From: an uncultured Methanobrevibacter sp.
GTDB taxonomy: Archaea > Methanobacteriota > Methanobacteria > Methanobacteriales > Methanobacteriaceae
Assembly: GCA_900320515.1 (NCBI GenBank)
Contig: ONSJ01000005.1
Coordinates: 1-64,000 of the forward strand
DNA length: 64,000 nucleotides
Direction of reading: 5' to 3'
Under the pieces are notes generated by a model. It was not told the DNA's origin, searched no databases, and saw only the letters and a program-made list of their open reading frames with translations. The position numbers and the translations under genes are program-made. Positions within the stretch are counted from its first letter, which is position 1. The number at the start of each line of letters is the position of its first letter. Positions 49,397 to 59,622 of the stretch are shown piece by piece.

Positions 49397-49723
49397 TTAG
49401 CGAAACACTGATATAACTGACAGGGTCCACACCACCACTGTAACTATCAGCACAAATTTTCCGTGCTTCTTGGCCCTTGATGAATCCCTTGTGAGAAGGT
49501 AGATTCCTATAATCAAACCGATTAGAGGAATAAGAATCGCCATTACATATCCCACAACTATCGCTATGGTATAGTTCTTATCGCTGAGCTCGATATACTG
49601 TCGCCTGTTTTCCTGATATGTGTTTGTGGTTTTTTGAGGATTATCAATCTCGGCCCCGCAGTTTTTGCAGAATTTGGCCGCATCTATCAGTTCCTCACCG
49701 CATGCCGGACAATATTTGGTCAT
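49397..49723 (-). CDS. Small zinc-ribbon membrane protein
   Basis: 108 residues. An N-terminal zinc ribbon (YCPACGEELIDAAKFCKNCGAE), a polar linker, and two membrane helices (IVVGYVMAILIPLIGLIIGIYLL and FVLIVTVVVWTLSVISVF). Zinc-ribbon/membrane proteins of this type recur in this part of the window (54083-55150). Function unknown. Convergent with cpgS. Confidence 0.75.
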   Translation of the reverse strand: MTKYCPACGEELIDAAKFCKNCGAEIDNPQKTTNTYQENRRQYIELSDKNYTIAIVVGYVMAILIPLIGLIIGIYLLTRDSSRAKKHGKFVLIVTVVVWTLSVISVFR

Positions 49724-49984: not shown

Positions 49985-50344
49985 ATGAAAAAACATGAAT
50001 TTAAGAGAATTATGACAAACTACAGCTTTCGTGAAGGAGATAAAGTTCTCCAAAAATTAATTCAATCCAAAAACAAAGAAAAAAAATATGTTCGAACTAA
50101 ACATATTGAAAATCAAGCTAAAAAAAGAAAGATTAATATAGATTATCTTGAAAAAATGTTATTAACAAAAGAACCATTGGGCGTTCTATCCAGCAGAAAA
50201 AATCGCTTTAAAATATTTTTTCCAAGCGAAACCAATGGCGACAAAAATGATTTGATAATTATAATCGCAATTGAATCAGATGAAACAATTATTGGCGTAA
50301 CTGCCTATGAAGATTCAAAAACCAAAAGAGAGGGGATTAAATGA
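49985..50344 (+). CDS. DUF4258-like toxin of a two-gene module
   Basis: 119 residues. YVRTKHIENQAKKRKINIDYLEKMLLTKEPLGV then beta strands with FKIFFPS and DLIIIIAIESDETIIGVTAY is the pattern of DUF4258 (RelE/BrnT-like fold), often a toxin with a DUF2283 partner. Ends in an ATGA overlap with such a partner. The N-terminal 35 basic residues are extra. Target not predictable. Confidence 0.6.
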   Translation: MKKHEFKRIMTNYSFREGDKVLQKLIQSKNKEKKYVRTKHIENQAKKRKINIDYLEKMLLTKEPLGVLSSRKNRFKIFFPSETNGDKNDLIIIIAIESDETIIGVTAYEDSKTKREGIK

Positions 50345-50706
50345 TTTCAAAAACTTTCAAGGCAAAAACTGAATTTGATTATGATTTAAACATCTACACA
50401 ATCACATCATGTGAGAATTTTGAATTTGGGAAATCACTGGAAATAGAGGAAGGAATAATAATGGATTTCGACACAAATGACATGCCCATTTCAATTGAAA
50501 TATTGGATATTTCAGAAAGGCTTAATTTGAGCAAAGATGAAATTAAAAATTCAAATGCCCATATGAATATCAAAAGTACAAAAGATATTTTAGAAATCTG
50601 CGTGACATTTTTCATTAAGATTCATGATAGCGAGTTTAGGCAAACAATCGACTCAAAAATTGCAAATAATTTTAATATTCCCGAAATGGAATTTGCAATA
50701 GTGTAG
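50341..50706 (+). CDS. DUF2283-like antitoxin of the same module
   Basis: 121 residues. EFDYDLNIYTITSC, then LEIEEGIIMDFDTNDMPISIEILDISERLNLS is the DUF2283 pattern (beta hairpin ending in IEILDAS). A C-terminal extension is not typical. Overlaps the upstream DUF4258-like gene by 4 bases. Together they are read as a toxin-antitoxin pair, antitoxin second. Confidence 0.65.
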   Translation: MISKTFKAKTEFDYDLNIYTITSCENFEFGKSLEIEEGIIMDFDTNDMPISIEILDISERLNLSKDEIKNSNAHMNIKSTKDILEICVTFFIKIHDSEFRQTIDSKIANNFNIPEMEFAIV

Positions 50707-50708
50707 GG

Positions 50709-50731
50709 ATAATTAGCATACTGCTAATTAT
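50709..50731. terminator. Bidirectional terminator
   Basis: ATAATTAGCA (50709-50718) pairs with TGCTAATTAT (50722-50731) around TAC, between the convergent DUF2283-like gene and the next minus-strand gene, whose stop lies in the stem. Confidence 0.65.
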
Positions 50732-51294
50732 TCACCAAACAATTTTTCAATCAAATCTTCTTCATTTTTATAAAAGTTAAGCTTCAGTACTCTCTGCAGG
50801 GTATCGGGTGCTCCCAGAAGTTCCATTGCCTGATCCCATGGAATGAACACCTTTTTGGCATCCTGATTGTAGCAAAGCTCCAAAGTTTGGGGCAACTTTC
50901 CCTTACTTGAGTCAGTCAGTATTACTGTAGCGTCATCAATATTTTGATTCCTGTTGACGGATTCATCAGATACGATTTCCGCTATATTAAAATTAGTAGT
51001 TTCATCATCACCCATCAGATTATCAATCACTTTTTCATTATTTTCGATGGATAATTTGAAGATGTCACCGTCTATGAAATATACCTCGCCGACATCGCAT
51101 GTCACGTCAAGAAGTGAGCTGAATTCGTCGGCTTCGGGATAGATCTCTTCGGGTTCCTCGAATTCCGGAATCACATAGCCTGACCTGTCAACAAAGTCGG
51201 CCTCTCCGGCGATGATTTTCAAAAGGCGAATGATTTCCCTGTTCTGGTTTTCGATATTCTTATTGATTCTTATTAGCTCCTCTAGTTCAGACAT
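50728..51294 (-). CDS. Acidic protein with an N-terminal coiled coil
   Basis: 188 residues. A short coiled coil (MSELEELIRINKNIENQNREIIRLLKII), then an acidic linker and a mixed domain ending TLQRVLKLNFYKNEEDLIEKLFGE. The region TVILTDSSKGKLPQTLELCYNQDAKKVFIPWDQAMELLG may be a small beta barrel. Not recognised. Located between the toxin module and the SseB/helicase operon. Confidence 0.55.
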   Translation of the reverse strand: MSELEELIRINKNIENQNREIIRLLKIIAGEADFVDRSGYVIPEFEEPEEIYPEADEFSSLLDVTCDVGEVYFIDGDIFKLSIENNEKVIDNLMGDDETTNFNIAEIVSDESVNRNQNIDDATVILTDSSKGKLPQTLELCYNQDAKKVFIPWDQAMELLGAPDTLQRVLKLNFYKNEEDLIEKLFGE

Positions 51295-51551: not shown

Positions 51552-52457
51552 TCAGGATATCAAAAACATGTAATAGATTGTATCGCACAGCTTCTCGTCA
51601 TGGGCAAACTTCTCAAATCCTATGGAATATTTAAGAAGGGTGACCCTTGGAATGAGGACATTGTCGCTTTGCGGATTCAGGATTATCCCTTCCATGTCCT
51701 CTGAAAGCACAAAATTTACAAGCATGGCAAGGTTTACCACCTGAGAATACCTGAATTTGGTCGTCTCGACTTTCTTGATTTTATCCTCGCCTGAAAATAT
51801 TGTCGCATAGGTTCCTCCGACATTGTCGGTATACATCTGAGCCAGCGGCCCTGAGTCCATCATCGAGATGACTCCGTCCTTTGCCTTTGGGGAGAGATCG
51901 ACATCGCTCACCATCATCGTAAGAAGCCTTGATTTTGACATCACTTCAAAGAGCGCCTCGTAATCGCCGATGTTTTGAGGGTTTTCGATGAACCTTTCAA
52001 GCTCCTCGTTTCGGGTGTCCTTGAGTTTCTTGAGCTCGTCAACGGTATAGGCATTTGTCGAGTAGAAATTAGTCTTTGGAATGTTTTTTATTTCAAGAAT
52101 GAACTCCTTGGTGAACACATACTTTTCGGTTGCGGGATTGAGGACATATCCTTCAATGTCGCTGGTTTTCAATACATTCTGATAGAGCTCGAAGGAGTTC
52201 TGCATCAGCTCAAGGTCATCCTCATCTTTGAAAAACTTTCTGAACTCATCAGCATCCGTGAAAAGAGGAGTCAGCTTCAGACCGCTGTCATCCTCATAGA
52301 TTATGAAATTAAGACCGAATTCATCCCTTTTTGCCGGAATATACAGGTTTGAGTATCTAAACTCATGAATGAGCCTCAGGGTCAAATCCTTTGTAAGCCT
52401 ATTGTCGTTTGAATATATGTCTTCTATTACTGTCCTTAGGTGTTTGTGGTTAGTCAT
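51552..52457 (-). CDS. SseB-like protein, copy 1
   Basis: 301 residues from ATG 52457, which overlaps the helicase stop (ATGACTAA); the longer upstream start lies within the helicase gene. Two SseB-like halves: LKLTPLFTDADEFRKFFKDED with IEGYVLNPATEKYVF, and YATIFSGEDK with MEGIILNPQSDNVLIPR. The signature GhhhNPxxxxhhh(P/S)R recurs in four more proteins in this window. SseB-type domains occur in secretion and immunity loci; the function here is unknown. Last gene of the AAA/helicase operon. Confidence 0.75.
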   Translation of the reverse strand: MTNHKHLRTVIEDIYSNDNRLTKDLTLRLIHEFRYSNLYIPAKRDEFGLNFIIYEDDSGLKLTPLFTDADEFRKFFKDEDDLELMQNSFELYQNVLKTSDIEGYVLNPATEKYVFTKEFILEIKNIPKTNFYSTNAYTVDELKKLKDTRNEELERFIENPQNIGDYEALFEVMSKSRLLTMMVSDVDLSPKAKDGVISMMDSGPLAQMYTDNVGGTYATIFSGEDKIKKVETTKFRYSQVVNLAMLVNFVLSEDMEGIILNPQSDNVLIPRVTLLKYSIGFEKFAHDEKLCDTIYYMFLIS

Positions 52458-54027
52458 CAAAGTTATTTTGTCTGAAAAGATATTTAAATGAATCCGGCAG
52501 GAACCTGTCATTTTTCACGAACTCGGAAATTCTGGAATCTATGAAATAGGTGACGCAGTAGTCGTCCTCAAACCTCATTCCCCTTCCGTAGGTCTGAACC
52601 AGGGCAAGGGAGGTCTTGTAGTCATACCAGTCCCCGTCGGCGTTTGCCCTCATCATTATCTGCTTGTCTCCCAAATCGGGATATGGCAATTTATAGATTA
52701 TCTGAAATCTGCACAAATCTCCCGGCAGGTCAACGCCCTCATTCATCGAAGGCGAAACAAGGACGAGAGGTTCTGTTGAGCCTTTGAATTTCTCAAGCTG
52801 CTCGGCACGGTTTTGGGTGTTGTGCTCCATCAGCCTTGAGTCATTGAGGTTGTCTATCAGGTAGTCCTTGCAGGATTTGCTTACGGTGTGTATGATTCCC
52901 TTTTCGTTTTTATGCCTTTCCAAAATGGACCTTATGGCGTCAAGGGTTTTTGGGGCATTGTCGTTTATGCATTTGCGGGACATGTCATACTCTCCAAGGG
53001 ATTTGACGGGATTTCTACTGAGGTCAAATGGCGATTTTCGCCTTATCGGATAGATTTCATCCTCGCTTATCCCCAGGCATTTTGAAAAGAATTTCCAGTC
53101 AAGGACGGATGCGCTCATGAATATGCAGACCTCACCGTACTCAAGAAGGGTGTTTTTGGCATACCTGTCAACCTTCAGGGGCTTGAACTCGAGAATCTCA
53201 TAGTCACTGTTGTAGTCAAAAACCCAGCTGTAGGGGTCATAGGCGATGTTTTCTATGAACCGGTTGCAGTCGCTTATCTCCCTTTTAATGAATGCGATCT
53301 TTTCCGCCAAATGGGGCTTTTTGACATCCTTGATTCTTTCAAGCTCCTTGAGATATTTCTCCCGCACCTCCTGAATGAACATGAGCCAGACGTCATAGTC
53401 CCCGTTTTCAAGCTCATAAAGCATTGCGTCCGTAATGTCCAATTTCAGATAATTTGAAAGGTCACTTAATGAAAACTCAAGCTTCAGCTGGCTCATTATG
53501 ACATTTTCAAGGTTGTGGGCCTCATCGCAAATCAGGAGTTGCCTCTTTTTAAAATCTCCGACATAGTTGAGTTCCAGAAACATGTAATGGTAGTTTGAGA
53601 TGACGGTTTTCGAATTGAGTGCCCTGTGCTTTTGGATGTAGTAGTCGCAGTCTGTTTTCGGGTTTTCGCAGGCCTCCTCTCCTGCTATGCATCTTCCCTC
53701 GTCGCATGTAAGCTCCATGTCCTTTCGGCACTGGAAGTTTCCCCTTCCCTTCACAAGGCAGATATTGCTGAAATCCTCGATGTACTGGTCCTGCAGCTGC
53801 TTTGTGACGGTCAGTATATATGAATTCTCATATATTGATGAGAGCGTGGCGGCGATGGCGGATTTTCCGGTTCCCGTTCCCGCCTCTAGGACTATATATC
53901 GATAGCCCCGGCTGACTGCATCGACTATCTCAGAAATGGTTTCAAGCTGGTCCGGCCTCGGGCTTTTGAAGGGGAAATGCCTTTCGGCCTCCGGCCTGAT
54001 TTTCGAATATTCGCTGTACTGCCACAT
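52450..54027 (-). CDS. DinG/XPD-family Fe-S helicase
   Basis: 525 residues. SPRPDQLETISEIV Q-motif-like start, Walker A EAGTGTGKSAI (~49-55), four cysteines of an Fe-S domain between ~100 and 135 (FQCRKDMELTCDEGRCIAGEEACENPKTDC), DEAH box ICDEAHN (~167), and C-terminal motifs VLVSPSMNEGVDLPGD and QTYGRGMRFEDD. A 5'-to-3' DNA helicase of superfamily 2. In this operon it may process nucleic acid in defence or repair. It shares translation coupling with an SseB-like gene. Confidence 0.9.
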   Translation of the reverse strand: MWQYSEYSKIRPEAERHFPFKSPRPDQLETISEIVDAVSRGYRYIVLEAGTGTGKSAIAATLSSIYENSYILTVTKQLQDQYIEDFSNICLVKGRGNFQCRKDMELTCDEGRCIAGEEACENPKTDCDYYIQKHRALNSKTVISNYHYMFLELNYVGDFKKRQLLICDEAHNLENVIMSQLKLEFSLSDLSNYLKLDITDAMLYELENGDYDVWLMFIQEVREKYLKELERIKDVKKPHLAEKIAFIKREISDCNRFIENIAYDPYSWVFDYNSDYEILEFKPLKVDRYAKNTLLEYGEVCIFMSASVLDWKFFSKCLGISEDEIYPIRRKSPFDLSRNPVKSLGEYDMSRKCINDNAPKTLDAIRSILERHKNEKGIIHTVSKSCKDYLIDNLNDSRLMEHNTQNRAEQLEKFKGSTEPLVLVSPSMNEGVDLPGDLCRFQIIYKLPYPDLGDKQIMMRANADGDWYDYKTSLALVQTYGRGMRFEDDYCVTYFIDSRISEFVKNDRFLPDSFKYLFRQNNFDD

Positions 54028-54082
54028 TGGTTAAATCTTGTCAGCGGATAGTATTTAAATATTGCCAGAGAGCATTTGAAAA

Positions 54083-55150
54083 CTAATCATAGTCCCTGAC
54101 GGAATCGATGAGATTATCCATCTCGCCTATAAGGTCGTCGACATCCTCTTGTGTGGTTATGTTGTCGCTTACGATAAGCTCGCTTGAAAGGCGGTCCATC
54201 TTGTCTATGATTTCATTGAGAATCTTTATTTTCACTTCGATTTCAGAGGCGATTCTCTCGGAGTATTCATCGGCAAGGCTTATCATGGTATATGCGGAAT
54301 CCCTGTGCTTTTCAAAGAGCTTTGCTGACTTGTCAACGCCTGATATGAATCTGGTGTATGTCAATTGCGGCGGCTCGAAGCGCTTGGCTATGAGGTCACG
54401 CGCTGACTTCTGCTTTGACTGGAAGCGCTTGTTCAGGTCATCCAGCTGGAGCTGGTAGTCAAGGTATTCTGGAATGATGTTGGGCCTTTGCGCAACGCTT
54501 TCGACCTTTGGAGTTTCCTTTATTTCCTTTTTCGGCTTTTTTTTAGGAAGCTCAGGCTTGACGTCTGAGTCTCTGCCAATAAGCTTGTGGAGTGCAAAGC
54601 CTATCGCAAGGGTCGGAATCTCAAGGATAAGACCCAGAATTATTGCGGTGAAAAGGACCATTGTATTGTATGTCACAAGTCCCACTGCCAGTCCGAAAAG
54701 GAATACGATAAATGAGATTATCTTTGTCTTGGAAAGGACATAACCTCCGTTTCGGGTCTGCCAGAAAAACATCAGATGCTTCAGGTCCACAAGAAGTCCG
54801 TAATCGTTGTATCTGATCTTGTTGATTGGCGGGTCTCCCTTGAATCTGTGGAGTATGAATCCAAGAAGGAAGGTTATGAGTCCGGATACTGTCCCCAAAA
54901 GCAATGCCACCGGATGGGGTGATGCGGCAAAGGAGAAGAGTGTGATGAAGAGAAACAATGCAATTCCTGAAAGCTTTGACTTTGAAAGCATGCTTCCCTG
55001 AGGATAGTTCCAGTAGAAAAGCTTATGAATCGCATCATCCTTGGGGGCTGCAAGCTCTGTGGCCCTTGTGAAAGTGCTGCATTTGCATGACGGGCAGAAG
55101 TTTGCCCCGTCGTCAACCTCATTTCCGCAGTTGTTACATATCTTTGACAT
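54083..55150 (-). CDS. Zinc-ribbon, four-helix membrane protein with a coiled-coil tail
   Basis: 355 residues. Zinc ribbon with C5, C8, C19 and C22, then two pairs of membrane helices (~58-100 and ~140-190), each preceded by a similar sequence (SKSKLSGIALFLFITLFSFA; SKTKIISFIVFLFGLAVGL), i.e. an internal repeat. A Lys/Pro linker and a helical C-terminus (~220-355) follow, of the XpaC/coiled-coil sort. It starts 2 bases after the AAA gene stop. It could anchor the AAA complex to the membrane. Confidence 0.7.
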   Translation of the reverse strand: MSKICNNCGNEVDDGANFCPSCKCSTFTRATELAAPKDDAIHKLFYWNYPQGSMLSKSKLSGIALFLFITLFSFAASPHPVALLLGTVSGLITFLLGFILHRFKGDPPINKIRYNDYGLLVDLKHLMFFWQTRNGGYVLSKTKIISFIVFLFGLAVGLVTYNTMVLFTAIILGLILEIPTLAIGFALHKLIGRDSDVKPELPKKKPKKEIKETPKVESVAQRPNIIPEYLDYQLQLDDLNKRFQSKQKSARDLIAKRFEPPQLTYTRFISGVDKSAKLFEKHRDSAYTMISLADEYSERIASEIEVKIKILNEIIDKMDRLSSELIVSDNITTQEDVDDLIGEMDNLIDSVRDYD

Positions 55151-55152
55151 AT

Positions 55153-56607
55153 CTATTCCTCAACTAAAAAATCCTCATATGTTAGCGTGTTCAGTTCCTC
55201 GTCGGTTATGTCTGTCTGTGGAGCGAGCCTGTTTGCCTGGGCGGTTATCACCTCTTCAAAGAAGTTCCTCACTGCCCTTCCGTTTGCGAAGTTGTCCGAT
55301 TTGTGCTCGCACATCCTTTCAAAGTACTGCCTCAGGTATTCCTTGGCTGCATCGTCGGGGGTTAGGTTGGCCTCGTCGCACATCAGCATGAAAATGTCGT
55401 AGAGCTCCTCTGCGGTGTAGTCCTCGAAGTAGATGAACTTGTTGAACCTTGACTCGAGACCGGGATTTGAGTGCAGGAAGCGCTCCATCAGCGCAGGATA
55501 TCCTGCAACGATGACGATCAAATCGTCACGGTTATCCTCCATGGCCTTAAGCAGAGTGTCGATGGCTTCCTTTCCGTAGTCGTTTTCGGATGTTGACGCA
55601 AGGGAATATGCCTCGTCGATAAAGAGTATTCCTCCCATTGCCTCATCGATTACTCCTTTTGTCTTTATTGCGGTCTGGCCGACGTATCCTCCAACAAGGC
55701 CTGACCTGTCGGTTTCGATGAGATGGCCCTTTGACAGCAATCCAATCTCATGATAGATTTTTGATAAAAGCCTTGCAACGGTTGTCTTTCCGGTTCCGGG
55801 GTTTCCGCTGAATACCAGATGAAGGCTCATTGCAGGCTGCTTTATGCCCCTTTCCTCCCTCAGCTTTCTTATCTGAACAAGGTTTATCAGTGAGTTGACA
55901 TCCTTTTTCACCTTTTCAAGGCCTATGAGCCTGTTGAGCTCATCGAGATATTCCTCAAGGGTGTGTGACTCTTCCTCACTGGGAGCGTCAAGGCCCTTCG
56001 GTATCCTGCATTCGGCACCGTCATCCTCAATGAGGTAGTCGCCGAGGCGATTTTCGAGCCTCTCGATATAATCGCAGTACTTTTCATAGACTTCGGGATT
56101 GAGCTCGCCGTCAACGGTCAAAAAGAAGTTTCCAAGAAACCTGTATGAGTCGAAAAGCTCGTTGCATGAGCGAACCCCTGTCATGTCGAACTGCCTTGCA
56201 AAAAGGTCAAGCTCATGAAGGCACTCGAATGATGCCGGCATCTCGTCGATTTCGGCATCTGCAAGCTTCATGATGTCCTCCTTTGTATAATAGGAAATCA
56301 GAAGCTCGTTTATGAAGTTGAGCTCGTTGTCTGTAATGACGCCGTCTCCAAGGCCAAGGAAGCTGAAGTACCTGAAAAGGTCATCGAGAACGACGACCTC
56401 AAGGGGCGCGTTCTGCTGGCTGATTTTCGGACAGTGCTCTTTCAGCAAATCTATATCCAATGTCCTGATTAAAAACAGCACACCTGAAAGATGGCTTTTG
56501 AGATAGTCAACCCCAAGCTTTTCGGTTTTTGAATTGCAGTTTGGACAGGTCATCTTTGAGTTGTCCAAAACCTTACCGCATTTTGTGCAAATAGTCCACT
56601 CCAACAT
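55153..56607 (-). CDS. CbxX/SpoVK-type AAA+ ATPase with zinc ribbon and TerB-like region
   Basis: 484 residues. Zinc ribbon (C7, C10, C21, C24), a middle helical region with FLGLGDGVITDNELNFINELL that resembles a TerB-like calcium/metal-binding fold, then the AAA domain with Walker A FSGNPGTGKTTVARLL (~266), GGYVGQTAIKTKGVIDEA, Walker B GGILFIDEAYSL (~326) and ESRFNKFIYF. Relatives act in type VII secretion (EccA), Rubisco activation and sporulation as protein-remodelling motors. Second gene of the SseB-AAA-membrane-helicase-SseB operon. Confidence 0.88.
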   Translation of the reverse strand: MLEWTICTKCGKVLDNSKMTCPNCNSKTEKLGVDYLKSHLSGVLFLIRTLDIDLLKEHCPKISQQNAPLEVVVLDDLFRYFSFLGLGDGVITDNELNFINELLISYYTKEDIMKLADAEIDEMPASFECLHELDLFARQFDMTGVRSCNELFDSYRFLGNFFLTVDGELNPEVYEKYCDYIERLENRLGDYLIEDDGAECRIPKGLDAPSEEESHTLEEYLDELNRLIGLEKVKKDVNSLINLVQIRKLREERGIKQPAMSLHLVFSGNPGTGKTTVARLLSKIYHEIGLLSKGHLIETDRSGLVGGYVGQTAIKTKGVIDEAMGGILFIDEAYSLASTSENDYGKEAIDTLLKAMEDNRDDLIVIVAGYPALMERFLHSNPGLESRFNKFIYFEDYTAEELYDIFMLMCDEANLTPDDAAKEYLRQYFERMCEHKSDNFANGRAVRNFFEEVITAQANRLAPQTDITDEELNTLTYEDFLVEE

Positions 56608-56655
56608 AATATACCTAAAAATAGTTATTGACCTGAAGGATTATATAAGTTGTGA

Positions 56656-57558
56656 TTATTCTATCGGAAATGCATATCTGGTGGCTTCGGCAAAATCGGT
56701 GTTGACCAGATCATCGTTTAGAAGTCGCAGTATGACCTGTCTTGGAACGTAATAGTCGTCGGTTCCGGGATTTATGATTATTCCGTCAAGGTCGTTTGAA
56801 AGTAGGAAGTGGAATACTGAATACTTGTTTGTCACCTGCACATAGTAGAAGAACTCCAGGTCCTCATGAAAGCTCACTATCGCATCGGTGTCCGTGTAGA
56901 CGGTTCCGTAGTGGTCCCTTCCGCTGTTTTTGGTGAATAATGTGAACGTGTCCGCCTCGTTTCTGTCGATGACACCGTCATGTGAAAACTCGCTCAGGTC
57001 CTTCTCGCTTACAACGACGTTTAGAAGGACTGAGTCAAGAAGAATCTTGGAGAGCTTATCGAACTTGTTGAAGTTGGAATCCTTGGAGATGAATCTTTTC
57101 AATTTTTCGTTTTTCTCGCTTAGGGCAATGTCTCTAAGTTTAATTCCGTCAAAGGCATTGTCGCTTTCAACCTTGCGGGTCAGCGGAATCTTGTTTAGAA
57201 CAACATTGTCTATGCAGAACTCATCGCTTCCAACGTCAATGAGAATTCCGTCAAAGCCGAAATCGTTGACCATCTTGATGTAGTATGCAATCTCATTTGG
57301 AAATGATTCGAATTCATCGGAATACTTCTTCAGCTCATCATTGCTTGTAAACAAGGGAATCAGACTTGTTCCGTCATCAACCTCTATATTGGGAAAGCTC
57401 AACTTCTCCCCGTCAAAAACAACCGGAATCAGCAACTCACAAACCTTAAGCTCCATCAAAAGGTTGAGGTACATGTCCTCGGGAGGCTTTGTGTTGTTTT
57501 TGTAAAAATTGCTAATCTCTGAAATCGATGATTTGAGATACTTGTTTGTAACAGTCAT
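56656..57558 (-). CDS. SseB-like protein, copy 2
   Basis: 300 residues, two SseB-like halves: TSLIPLFTSNDELKKYSDEF with FDGILIDVGSDEFCI, and YGTVYTDTD with LDGIIINPGTDDYYVPRQVI. Central region LRDIALSEKNEKLKRFI matches the same segment in copies 1 and 4 (LKDTRNEELERFI, LRDSMDNAELEDFL). First gene of the operon; the AAA ATPase follows after 48 bases. Divergent from the winged-helix gene at 57683, which could regulate it. Confidence 0.75.
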   Translation of the reverse strand: MTVTNKYLKSSISEISNFYKNNTKPPEDMYLNLLMELKVCELLIPVVFDGEKLSFPNIEVDDGTSLIPLFTSNDELKKYSDEFESFPNEIAYYIKMVNDFGFDGILIDVGSDEFCIDNVVLNKIPLTRKVESDNAFDGIKLRDIALSEKNEKLKRFISKDSNFNKFDKLSKILLDSVLLNVVVSEKDLSEFSHDGVIDRNEADTFTLFTKNSGRDHYGTVYTDTDAIVSFHEDLEFFYYVQVTNKYSVFHFLLSNDLDGIIINPGTDDYYVPRQVILRLLNDDLVNTDFAEATRYAFPIE

Positions 57559-57682
57559 TATACTTATTATATCGCTTTAAGTATTTAAAAATATTTTTGT
57601 TAATAAACGCAATAAAGTGAAAAGAAACTCGAAAGAACGTCGAAAAAATCCAAGTCTTAAATAGCAAATAAAAAGAAATAAC

Positions 57683-57982
57683 ATGAAAATCAAGCCCACA
57701 GAAGACGAGATATGGGGAAATATCGGATACATCAAGATTTCGCAGTCACGCTACAAGACCCTCAAATGCCTCAGCAGAGAAAACCTCATGCCGACAGAAA
57801 TTTCCAAAAGGACAAGGCTGACTTCCGCCCAAGTTTCAGTGGCCCTCAAGGACATGAAAAAGAAAAGGATTGTCAGATGCATGAACGAAGAGGCCGCAAA
57901 GGGCAGGATTTACCAGTGCACCGAATTGGGTTTAATGATTATTGAAACACTTGAGAAAACCAGCTTCAATCCCGAAGACTAG
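57683..57982 (+). CDS. Small winged-helix regulator, paralog of 33141-33401
   Basis: 99 residues: MPTEISKRTRLTSAQVSVALKDMKKKRIVRCMNEEAAKGRIYQCTELG, a compact wHTH with a basic wing. Starts about 125 bases from, and divergent to, the SseB/AAA operon. The 3' end overlaps the next gene by 4 bases, convergent. A local regulator of the operon is the simplest reading. Confidence 0.85.
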   Translation: MKIKPTEDEIWGNIGYIKISQSRYKTLKCLSRENLMPTEISKRTRLTSAQVSVALKDMKKKRIVRCMNEEAAKGRIYQCTELGLMIIETLEKTSFNPED

Positions 57983-58686
57983 TCAAGAACCTCACGTCCG
58001 CAGTCCGGACAGAAAACGGAATCAGGATCTATTTTTGCTCCGCAGTTTGTGCAGTAGACGTCATCGCTGTATATGACTGCCTTTCTTGCCTCAAGCTCCT
58101 CGGCTGAAATTTCACCCTGCTCAAAGAGATTCTGCAGTTCCAGAAGGGCGTCAATCTCATCATAGTCCTGGTTTTCGATGTTGTCCTCAAGGATTTCCTT
58201 AAGGGGCACCGCATTGTTCTCGTTTATTTCAAAGATGATTTCATCATCATCTGCGGTGGTGATTTTGAATGTTTTTTTGGACCAGCTTCCCTCATCTATT
58301 TCTATTTCAATCATCTCGGAGTAGGGAATTTCCAAATCTGTCTTATCTATTGTGATTCGGTCATGGTGAAGTATGAGGTCGGTGCCGATGGTCTTGTCAT
58401 CCTCCCTGATGTTGATCCATACCTTGCGCTCGGTGAATATGATTTCCTTTTGCCTTCTGATTGATGCAAGCCTGTGGTTTATGGAGTCAACGGAACCTTC
58501 AAACTCTTCAATGAGCTCTTCAGTGATTTCATCCTCATTGATGTCTATGTTTTTTGCCTTCAAAAACTTTAAGAATACCTTGTTTGGAGAACCCATGATG
58601 TTGAGAAGGTCATGCTCCTCCAGAAGCTCCTTGTTCCTGTCAAGGGTGTCGAATGAGGAATTCTTGAAAATGTTTTTAAGCTCCAT
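57979..58686 (-). CDS. PH-like/SHOCT/zinc-ribbon protein
   Basis: 235 residues. N-terminal helices, then a beta-rich part (TDLILHHDRITIDKTDLEIPYSEMIEIEI) that looks like a bacterial PH-type domain. A SHOCT-like segment follows (LLELQNLFEQGEISAEELEARKAVIYS), then a C-terminal zinc ribbon (YCTNCGAKIDPDSVFCPDCGREV). SHOCT and PH domains link to membrane and oligomer assembly in stress proteins. No catalytic motif seen. Confidence 0.75.
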   Translation of the reverse strand: MELKNIFKNSSFDTLDRNKELLEEHDLLNIMGSPNKVFLKFLKAKNIDINEDEITEELIEEFEGSVDSINHRLASIRRQKEIIFTERKVWINIREDDKTIGTDLILHHDRITIDKTDLEIPYSEMIEIEIDEGSWSKKTFKITTADDDEIIFEINENNAVPLKEILEDNIENQDYDEIDALLELQNLFEQGEISAEELEARKAVIYSDDVYCTNCGAKIDPDSVFCPDCGREVLD

Positions 58687-58723: not shown

Positions 58724-59608
58724 TCATGAAATCACTTCGGCAATGAGATAATCCTGCATGAAGACAAAGAGTATCCTAGCCCTTGTCCTTTCCCCAAACG
58801 TGCCCCAGATTTCACTTGCTGATTTTGCCTCATCAATCATGGTGTATGTGCTGTTTGCAACGTATCCCACGGTTTTTGCGTTGAACTCGACCCGTATGGC
58901 ATTGCTGTCATGCTCATTATCGGGCTCCTTTACCAAATCAACTATTGCTCCCTTTTCAGTCGGTGCCAAGTAGCCGTAGTGGTTGCGCCCGGCAATGCAC
59001 ACAAGAGGGTTTCTTGTCTCATCAATGATTTTAGACTGGCTTTCAAACTCATCCACCTTATCGTACTGCCGGTTTGCAAGCATGTTGCAGATGTAGGTTT
59101 CGCGCTTTTTTCCCATCAGCGCAAGGATGCGGGCCTTTGTTCTGAAGAATTCACATCTGTCATCCTCATCCCCGGTCAGCTTCAGAGCCTGGTTTAGCTT
59201 ATCCAGGGCTGATTGATAGTCCTGTGAATACTTGTCCTGCCAGGCCATCCTTTCAAGAAGCCTTGCCTTGTTGTCTTTTATATACTGGGCGTCCGTATTG
59301 CCAAGGGCCAAATCATAATACCTGAGGGCCTCATCATACCTGCCCATATCCTCAAGGATGATTGCCTTGACGTTGAGGACTTTCCAGTGCTTAGAGTATT
59401 CAAGGGCCCTGTTTATCACATTAAGGGCATCCTGATACTGGCCGTTTTCTCGAAGAGCCCATGCCTCCGCCCTCAATTGATGGGCTTTTGAAACCCTGTT
59501 GGGCTTTTGCTCTTCCTCCTCATCCTGAAGGTATCCCATGTACGGAATGTCCGGGACACCTACATGGTCTCCCCAGTCGGCGGGGTCTCCCACATGCCAT
59601 TCATCCAT
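58724..59608 (-). CDS. TPR protein with a C-terminal HIRAN domain
   Basis: 294 residues from ATG 59608 (AGGTGA is placed for it; the GTG at 59617 overlaps that site). Tetratricopeptide repeats at ~40-180 (AWALRENGQYQDALNVINRALEYS, AIILEDMGRYDEALRYYDLALGN). The HIRAN domain follows at ~205-270: CIAGRNHYGYLAPTEKGAIVDLVKEPDNEHDSNAIRV. HIRAN domains bind 3' ends of single-stranded DNA in helicases such as HLTF. Here it is joined to a scaffold rather than a helicase. Begins 14 bases after a VapB-like gene. Confidence 0.85.
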   Translation of the reverse strand: MDEWHVGDPADWGDHVGVPDIPYMGYLQDEEEEQKPNRVSKAHQLRAEAWALRENGQYQDALNVINRALEYSKHWKVLNVKAIILEDMGRYDEALRYYDLALGNTDAQYIKDNKARLLERMAWQDKYSQDYQSALDKLNQALKLTGDEDDRCEFFRTKARILALMGKKRETYICNMLANRQYDKVDEFESQSKIIDETRNPLVCIAGRNHYGYLAPTEKGAIVDLVKEPDNEHDSNAIRVEFNAKTVGYVANSTYTMIDEAKSASEIWGTFGERTRARILFVFMQDYLIAEVIS

Positions 59609-59622
59609 TATTCTCACCTGAA

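What the first reader, a model, noticed from the sequence alone, without database searches (positions are those of the whole stretch)
51552..57558. Five-gene operon: SseB-like, CbxX-type AAA, zinc-ribbon membrane protein, DinG/XPD helicase, SseB-like
The genes are spaced by 48, 2, 55 bases and one overlap, and lie between toxin-antitoxin-like loci. An EccA/CbxX-type remodeller, a membrane zinc-ribbon protein and an Fe-S helicase framed by two SseB-like proteins is a combination I do not know. A divergent winged-helix gene could control it. Possible roles: anti-viral defence, stress response, or secretion/membrane remodelling coupled to DNA repair.
Basis: partly seen in the sequence, partly recalled or inferred. 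Interest (0 to 1): 0.7.

Follow-up and report, generated by a model that had tools for sequence, protein, structure and literature searches.

The report
Gut-methanogen chaperone-helicase membrane stress operon
A conserved, fast-evolving gene cluster of gut methane-making archaea pairs a CbbX-type molecular chaperone with a membrane protein and, often, a DNA helicase; it is probably a stress or self-defence device of a type not described in what I read, but its function is untested.

Summary
The five genes are real and lie where stated. The cluster is not a chance row. In the 67 genomes of this genus-level group (Methanobrevibacter in record titles) the AAA gene occurs in 41, SseB_B in 40, full-length zinc-ribbon membrane protein (ZnTM) in 37 and operon-type helicase in 29, strongly co-occurring. 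AAA and ZnTM abut (-35 to +6 bases) in 33 of 42 loci; the exact five-gene order holds in 9 of 42. The proteins diverge 3-6 times more than the household XPD of the same genomes yet track each other.

New clue: the C-terminal helical bundle of ZnTM also occurs in proteins encoded beside TelA (22 of 30 non-operon loci), the bacterial XpaC-TelA arrangement; in the operon the AAA gene takes TelA's place.

Best reading (confidence 0.4): a modular stress-response machine in which a dedicated CbbX-clade chaperone docks on a membrane protein and remodels a client, probably the Fe-S helicase or the SseB-like proteins. Anti-viral defence remains possible. No function is shown. Known part families, apparently undescribed combination, genus-restricted: new variant of a known kind.

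The parts
56656..57558 (-). SseB_A: SseB-like protein with two SseB_N stretches (300 aa)
   Evidence: Pfam PF07179 1.9e-13, 2 stretches; next to AAA in 12 of 42 loci, next to SseB_B in 10 of 42
55153..56607 (-). AAA: N-terminal zinc ribbon, helical N-domain (about residues 30-190) without known family, C-terminal CbbX/SpoVK-type AAA+ with lid
   Evidence: CbbX chain 3syl Z 18.2 over 171 residues; full-length relatives in 41 of 67 genus genomes plus G029
54083..55150 (-). ZnTM: N-terminal zinc ribbon, four predicted membrane helices in two hairpin+2-helix units, linker, C-terminal four-helix bundle shared with TelA-neighbouring proteins
   Evidence: alignment A1; model pLDDT 78; TelA-neighbour analysis
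52450..54027 (-). DinG/XPD-type SF2 helicase with Walker A, DEAH, motif VI and five invariant cysteines (Fe-S type)
   Evidence: operon-type copy in 29 of 67 genus genomes
51552..52457 (-). SseB_B: SseB-like protein; likely start 52457 (8-base overlap with the helicase gene) rather than 52511
   Evidence: Pfam PF07179 2.2e-13; starts of relatives; in 40 of 67 genus genomes
50728..51294 (-). g50728: conserved protein following SseB_B; C-terminal half weakly like the BrxL C-terminus
   Evidence: follows SseB_B in 29 of 42 loci; PADLOC BrxL 2.4e-6 over residues 90-186 only
49397..49723 (-). small zinc-ribbon membrane protein, likely last gene of the extended operon
   Evidence: follows g50728 in 28 of 42 loci
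49985..50706 (+). toxin-antitoxin-like pair (second gene DUF2283) lying between two genes that abut in relatives
   Evidence: PF10049 1.6e-5
57683..57982 (+). divergent winged-helix protein, candidate regulator
   Evidence: diverges from SseB_A by 108-280 bases in 20 of 42 loci
57559..57682 (.). 124-base region between the divergent genes; TATA-like TTTTTAAATA upstream of SseB_A by eye
   Evidence: no repeats found
57979..58686 (-). SHOCT + C-terminal zinc-ribbon protein
   Evidence: family in 12 of 57 loci
58724..59617 (-). TPR + HIRAN domain protein; in four relatives a member directly follows the AAA gene
   Evidence: HIRAN 8.8e-7; AAA>TPR_HIRAN in 4 of 42 loci

Best explanation
A modular, genus-restricted stress-response operon. 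SHOWN by sequence: AAA and ZnTM form the tightest gene pair, SseB_B and usually the helicase accompany them, and the genes diverge together and faster than a household gene. INFERRED: (1) ZnTM sits in the membrane by its four helices; its C-terminal four-helix bundle, in other proteins of these archaea the neighbour of TelA, is the docking site. (2) The AAA ring, a CbbX/SpoVK-clade chaperone, docks there by its helical N-domain, taking the place TelA has elsewhere. (3) On envelope, oxidative or DNA-damage stress it remodels a dedicated client instead of degrading it; the best candidates are the Fe-S helicase (to activate it or strip it from DNA) and the SseB-like proteins as adaptors. (4) The helicase, or in other genomes a TPR-HIRAN protein, is the interchangeable DNA-acting output. 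(5) The divergent winged-helix protein may regulate the operon.
For: AAA-ZnTM adjacency in 33 of 42 loci with gaps -35 to +6, suggesting coupled translation. Co-occurrence in 67 genus genomes: AAA/ZnTM 37 both, 4 AAA only, 0 ZnTM only; AAA/SseB_B 39, 2, 1; DinG/AAA 28 both, 1 DinG only. Co-divergence: DinG/SseB_B r 0.92, ZnTM/DinG 0.87, AAA/SseB_B 0.87, AAA/ZnTM 0.78, against 0.57-0.74 with household XPD; mean distances 0.31-0.55 against 0.09 (18-20 genomes per pair). ZnTM bundle in TelA-neighbouring proteins: TelA same strand within 700 bases in 22 of 30 non-operon loci (29 of the 30 showed the domain), 0 of 25 operon loci; AAA within -34 to +7 bases in 22 of 25 operon loci; TelA identity checked in three loci, e.g. 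3.6e-67. Own genome has such a TelA locus (L145, G000:C33). XpaC/TelA are linked to cell-envelope stress in Firmicutes (passages of PMC10269926, PMC12791056, PMC3139573). Characterised CbbX/SpoVK/EccA-clade proteins are dedicated chaperones with variable N-termini (passages of PMC10659427). In genomes with another AAA type (about 570 aa, related N-domain) that gene lies 55-70 bases upstream of rubrerythrin in 7 of 15 inspected loci and near it in 2 more (one copy checked by Pfam). ZnTM and SseB_B were not found in plasmid or phage records or by viral-contig scans.
Against: No expression, interaction or phenotype data. XpaC (PF10112) and TerB (PF05099) models do not match these proteins; the XpaC link rests on gene position, topology and a very weak similarity to a Vibrio TelA neighbour (0.013 among four sequences). 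13 of 41 AAA genomes lack the operon-type helicase and 4 lack ZnTM, so neither is indispensable. In six relatives the helicase lies upstream of AAA, so the layout is loose. Gene clustering can reflect shared regulation only. Rapid divergence fits immunity as well as stress.
Confidence: 0.4

Rival explanations
1. Anti-viral or anti-mobile-element defence operon: the AAA and membrane protein sense infection (perhaps at the envelope) and license the helicase, or a TPR-HIRAN protein, to process invading DNA or abort the cell.
For: 3-6 times faster divergence than household XPD; presence in 41 of 67 genomes; interchangeable outputs; some loci hold UvrD-PDDEXK proteins (7 loci; two checked) or restriction-type genes; PIN and DUF2283 genes nearby; Ter/TelA systems are predicted to act against phages and xenobiotics (passage of PMC7824862).
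Against: No PADLOC hit that names a system for the core genes; the typeIV_DinG hit is non-specific; no constant nuclease; ZnTM and SseB_B not found in plasmid/phage records or by viral scans; recurring chromosomal neighbours (cDPGS in 10 loci, a 386-aa gene in 19); distances also correlate with household XPD (0.57-0.74). No enrichment statistic against control loci was made.
Confidence: 0.25
2. DNA-repair helicase operon: the Fe-S helicase is the working enzyme and AAA, ZnTM and the SseB proteins serve its maturation, localisation or removal from DNA.
For: Helicase motifs and five cysteines invariant in 16 of 16 aligned; DinG is the best co-diverging partner of SseB_B (r 0.92); HIRAN proteins nearby; only 1 of 29 operon-type helicase genomes lacks the AAA.
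Against: 13 of 41 AAA genomes lack it; in 4 layouts AAA is followed by TPR-HIRAN instead; a second XPD is present in all 138 family genomes, so basic repair does not need it.
Confidence: 0.2
3. Loose neighbourhood: SseB-like, zinc-ribbon and TPR genes multiply in these genomes and gather in one tolerant chromosomal region without joint function.
For: Many zinc-ribbon and SseB paralogues around the loci; order varies widely; in G093, G085 and G095 the pieces lie on separate contigs.
Against: AAA-ZnTM adjacency in 33 of 42, co-occurrence, and co-divergence beyond that with a household gene.
Confidence: 0.15

Closest known systems
CbbX / SpoVK / EccA clade of AAA+ dedicated chaperones
   Same: AAA module and lid; best structural match CbbX (Z 18.2); GY motif invariant; variable N-terminal domain, as described for the clade (passages of PMC10659427)
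   Different: Scores below the SpoVK, CbbX and EccA cut-offs (306/423, 255/459, 250/467 bits); N-terminal zinc ribbon plus a helical domain with no credible Pfam or PDB sequence match; client unknown
XpaC-TelA envelope-stress gene pair (and Ter-type stress systems)
   Same: Membrane protein with C-terminal helical bundle encoded next to a cytosolic partner; the same bundle neighbours TelA elsewhere in these archaea
   Different: No TelA in the operon; PF10112 does not match; the partner gene is a AAA+ ATPase; a DNA helicase is attached
XPD/DinG Fe-S SF2 helicases
   Same: Helicase motifs, five invariant cysteines, XPD-type PDB matches; 45% identical to the genome's household XPD
   Different: Second, faster-diverging copy found in operon context; many relatives carry a TPR-like C-terminal extension that the window's clade lacks
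Type IV-A CRISPR DinG (Csf4)
   Same: Full-length PADLOC model match 1e-73
   Different: The household XPD matches better (5.7e-87), so the match is not specific; Csf genes were not searched for

Membership tests
CbbX/SpoVK/EccA clade (AAA+) | AAA core plus AAA_lid_6, closest to CbbX/SpoVK | tested here: met
CbbX/SpoVK/EccA clade (AAA+) | GY signature in sensor 1 (per PMC10659427) | tested here: met
   G369 and Y370 invariant in the 17 aligned
CbbX/SpoVK/EccA clade (AAA+) | Asn four residues before the first arginine finger; second arginine finger | tested here: inconclusive
   N381 and R387 invariant, but Glu stands four after N381; other CbxX-type sequences vary there too. R444 and R447 invariant, assignment as sensor 2 is from recall
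SpoVK, CbbX or EccA proper | NCBIfam curated cut-off | tested here: not met
   306.4/422.95, 255.2/459.25, 250/466.65 bits
XPD/DinG Fe-S helicases | SF2 motifs and Fe-S cysteines | tested here: met
XPD/DinG Fe-S helicases | 5'-3' helicase activity and bound Fe-S cluster | not testable with these tools
   needs purified protein
Type IV-A CRISPR DinG | Specific match and Csf neighbours | tested here: inconclusive
   match not specific; no search for Csf genes was made
XpaC (PF10112) | Pfam model match | tested here: not met
   no match in own genome at these genes, nor listed for the window ZnTM or its paralogues
XpaC-TelA pair | TelA gene alongside | tested here: not met
   0 of 25 operon loci; 22 of 30 non-operon loci
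Ter systems | TerB domain | tested here: inconclusive
   PF05099 no match in own genome; N-domain has TerB-like 'DGxITDNE' motifs by eye; its fold was not searched alone
Known anti-phage defence systems | System-specific PADLOC models for the core genes | tested here: not met
   only generic hits, e.g. IetA 4e-10 on the AAA; none for ZnTM and both SseB proteins

The most novel reading that the evidence does not exclude
In gut methanogens a CbbX-clade AAA+ ring has replaced TelA as the partner of an XpaC-like membrane bundle, making a membrane-tethered, ATP-driven chaperone that controls an Fe-S DNA helicase through SseB-type adaptors: a new class of stress or immune machine linking the archaeal envelope to DNA processing.
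Probability: 0.25. Interest if true: 0.75.

Novelty: new variant of a known kind. Interest (0 to 1): 0.52.

Why it matters
Few CbbX/SpoVK/EccA-clade chaperones have a known client, and TelA/XpaC have no known biochemical mechanism (my recall, apart from the passages cited). An operon with a AAA gene fixed beside a TelA-partner membrane protein and a helicase gives a concrete bipartite complex to test, in methanogens that matter for ruminant methane. SseB-like proteins would gain a first functional context.

Tried and rejected
Type IV CRISPR reading of the helicase: rejected as non-specific. XpaC and TerB membership by Pfam: no match; kept as a resemblance only. Fold search of the ZnTM model in PDB: no match below E 0.001 (the helical matches listed, all above E 0.8, are meaningless). 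Fold search of the AAA model covers mainly the AAA part, so the N-domain fold is untested. PDB sequence search with the N-domain: nothing credible. Bacterial TelA neighbours: those of Sphaerotilus, Variovorax and Vibrio gave no significant match to the ZnTM bundle. Viral scans: no ZnTM or SseB_B relatives, generic AAA and XPD relatives only (helicase at most 36% identical there against 45% to the household XPD). Inverted repeats in the divergent promoter: none. Literature searches listed no paper that by title or abstract start describes this operon; Anantharaman et al. 2012 is not held and is known to me only by recall and as cited in PMC7824862 and PMC11090510.

Counting choices: I entered the gene sets by hand. 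AAA counted if zinc ribbon and N-domain were present or the locus was a contig-edge or split fragment (G066, G077, G074, G097); the 550-600 aa and 929 aa AAA types were left out, as was G029 (other genus). ZnTM includes partial G074; relatives without the zinc ribbon (G039, G040, G051, G052) and a partial N-terminal match (G058) were left out. DinG includes partial G079. In one search G074 gives two loci (41 genomes, 42 loci). Genomes are mostly drafts, so absences are uncertain; species relatedness was not corrected for in the Fisher tests. One search used 20 fetched household XPD copies plus the window genome's. Phylum-level searches reached 151 genomes.
Full report
WHAT IS THERE. The window is contig C37 of an unnamed 2.1 Mb draft genome; the nearest named records carrying the same genes are rumen and gut Methanobrevibacter (titles). 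The five ORFs lie on the - strand as reported. Pfam confirms SseB domains in both end genes, an AAA+ with AAA_lid_6, an N-terminal zinc ribbon on the membrane protein, and an XPD/DinG-type helicase. Relatives of the last gene begin at its residue 19, so its likely start is 52457 and it overlaps the helicase gene by 8 bases, not 62.

CONSERVATION. Full-length AAA relatives were found in 41 of 67 genomes of the genus-level group and in one other genome of the family (G029). SseB_B is in 40, full-length ZnTM in 37 and the operon-type helicase in 29 of the 67. Fisher tests give 5e-15 for AAA/SseB_B, 1e-14 for AAA/ZnTM and 1e-7 for DinG/AAA, without correction for relatedness. In 42 loci AAA is followed by ZnTM at -35 to +6 bases in 33; ZnTM by DinG in 15; DinG by AAA in 6; DinG by SseB_B in 12; SseB_A by AAA in 12; SseB_A by SseB_B in 10; AAA directly by TPR-HIRAN in 4. 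The intersection of these lists gives the exact five-gene order in 9 loci including the window. Downstream, SseB_B-g50728 (29 of 42) and g50728-zinc-ribbon gene (28 of 42) are also conserved. The system is therefore a module with a fixed AAA-ZnTM heart and exchangeable companions.

EVOLUTION. Against the nearest relative (G074) dN/dS is 0.08 to 0.18 for AAA, SseB_A, the winged-helix gene, SHOCT gene, helicase, g50728 and small zinc-ribbon gene, so these proteins are under purifying selection; synonymous sites are near saturation in the further comparison with G084. Mean protein distances over 18-20 genomes are AAA 0.31, SseB_B 0.32, DinG 0.37, g50728 0.45, ZnTM 0.55, against 0.09 for the household XPD; their mutual correlations (0.78 to 0.92) exceed those with the household XPD (0.57 to 0.74). 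They behave as a co-evolving, fast-diverging set.

THE MEMBRANE PROTEIN. The zinc-ribbon cysteines C5, C8, C19 and C22 are invariant in 21 aligned sequences. The model (pLDDT 78, pTM 0.47) shows the zinc ribbon, two units of hairpin plus two long helices, a disordered linker and a four-helix bundle. The bundle recurs in other proteins of the family: relatives of ZnTM, most of them bundle-only, occur in 105 of 151 phylum genomes and 9 of 20 genera. Where the bundle is not in this operon it lies on the same strand within 700 bases of TelA in 22 of 30 loci; of 25 operon loci 22 have AAA there and none has TelA. TelA identity was confirmed by Pfam in the three copies scanned, one being the window genome's own (L145). 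In bacteria the TelA partner is XpaC; PF10112 itself does not match.

THE AAA PROTEIN. It matches SpoVK, CbbX and EccA models below their cut-offs and CbbX structurally (Z 18.2, rmsd 2.6, 171 residues). Walker A, Walker B and the GY motif are invariant. The helical N-domain has no credible Pfam or PDB sequence relative. It is confined to two genera among 151 genomes (50 of 151), where it also heads a second AAA type and stands alone in two genomes (L037:1252-1815, L038:2285-2848). The second AAA type, in genomes without the operon AAA, is placed 55-70 bases upstream of rubrerythrin in L073, L074, L075, L077, L080, L081 and L082, and near it in L078 and L079 (9 of 15 loci inspected; Pfam-checked in L082); a vWA-type gene follows within about 2.5 kb in L074, L075, L077, L081 and L082 (one copy checked, VWA 2e-4). 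[quoted passage not shown]

THE HELICASE. Motifs and five cysteines are invariant in 16 sequences. It is a second copy beside the household XPD present in all 138 family genomes and is 45% identical to it. Many relatives carry a C-terminal TPR-like extension. The PADLOC type IV label is not informative.

MECHANISM. The reading committed to is a membrane-docked dedicated chaperone with a DNA helicase, or a TPR-HIRAN protein, as exchangeable output. Shown: gene content, adjacency, co-occurrence, co-divergence, the TelA relation of the ZnTM bundle. Inferred: docking, client, trigger, regulation. XpaC/TelA genes respond to or protect against envelope stress in Firmicutes (passages of PMC10269926, PMC12791056, PMC3139573), which together with the rubrerythrin neighbour of the sister AAA makes stress response somewhat more likely than defence. 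For defence speak the fast divergence, patchy presence, exchangeable parts and occasional restriction-type or UvrD-nuclease neighbours; against it speak the recurring chromosomal neighbours, lack of a constant nuclease and absence of ZnTM and SseB_B from the plasmid, phage and viral collections as searched.

LIMITS. The genomes are public assemblies, mostly drafts, of one family plus a few others; contig ends cut several loci. Names of small domains read by eye (TerB-like, TATA box) are leads. No paper describing this operon appeared in the searches, which cover only the open library held here and of which I read listings and the passages cited.

Noticed in passing
L044:4460-7090 (+) with L044:3944-4360 (-): An 876-aa protein with no Pfam (E<0.1) or PADLOC match, divergent from a DUF1232 gene; the family recurs in 7 loci around this operon.
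   Followed up: partly
L073, L074, L075, L077, L080, L081, L082: A sister AAA gene (about 570 aa) lies 55-70 bases upstream of rubrerythrin, with a vWA gene nearby in several: a possible oxidative-stress chaperone.
   Followed up: partly
49985-50706: A DUF2283 gene pair of toxin-antitoxin type stands, on the opposite strand, between two genes that abut in 28 of 42 loci; it looks like an insertion.
   Followed up: partly
L145:4443-7087 (own genome C33), L161, L163: Archaeal TelA loci in which the upstream gene carries the ZnTM-type helical bundle: apparently an archaeal counterpart of XpaC-TelA not matched by the XpaC model.
   Followed up: yes
L067:15899-19009, L054:12188-15358: UvrD-like helicases fused to a PD-(D/E)XK nuclease domain near the operon; family in 7 loci.
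   Followed up: partly
L147:8571-14597, L146:1811-5443: Giant proteins (2008 and 1210 aa) ending in the ZnTM-type bundle in other genera of the family.
   Followed up: no
L069 (G097): The AAA gene is split into two adjacent frames, a possible pseudogene or assembly error.
   Followed up: no
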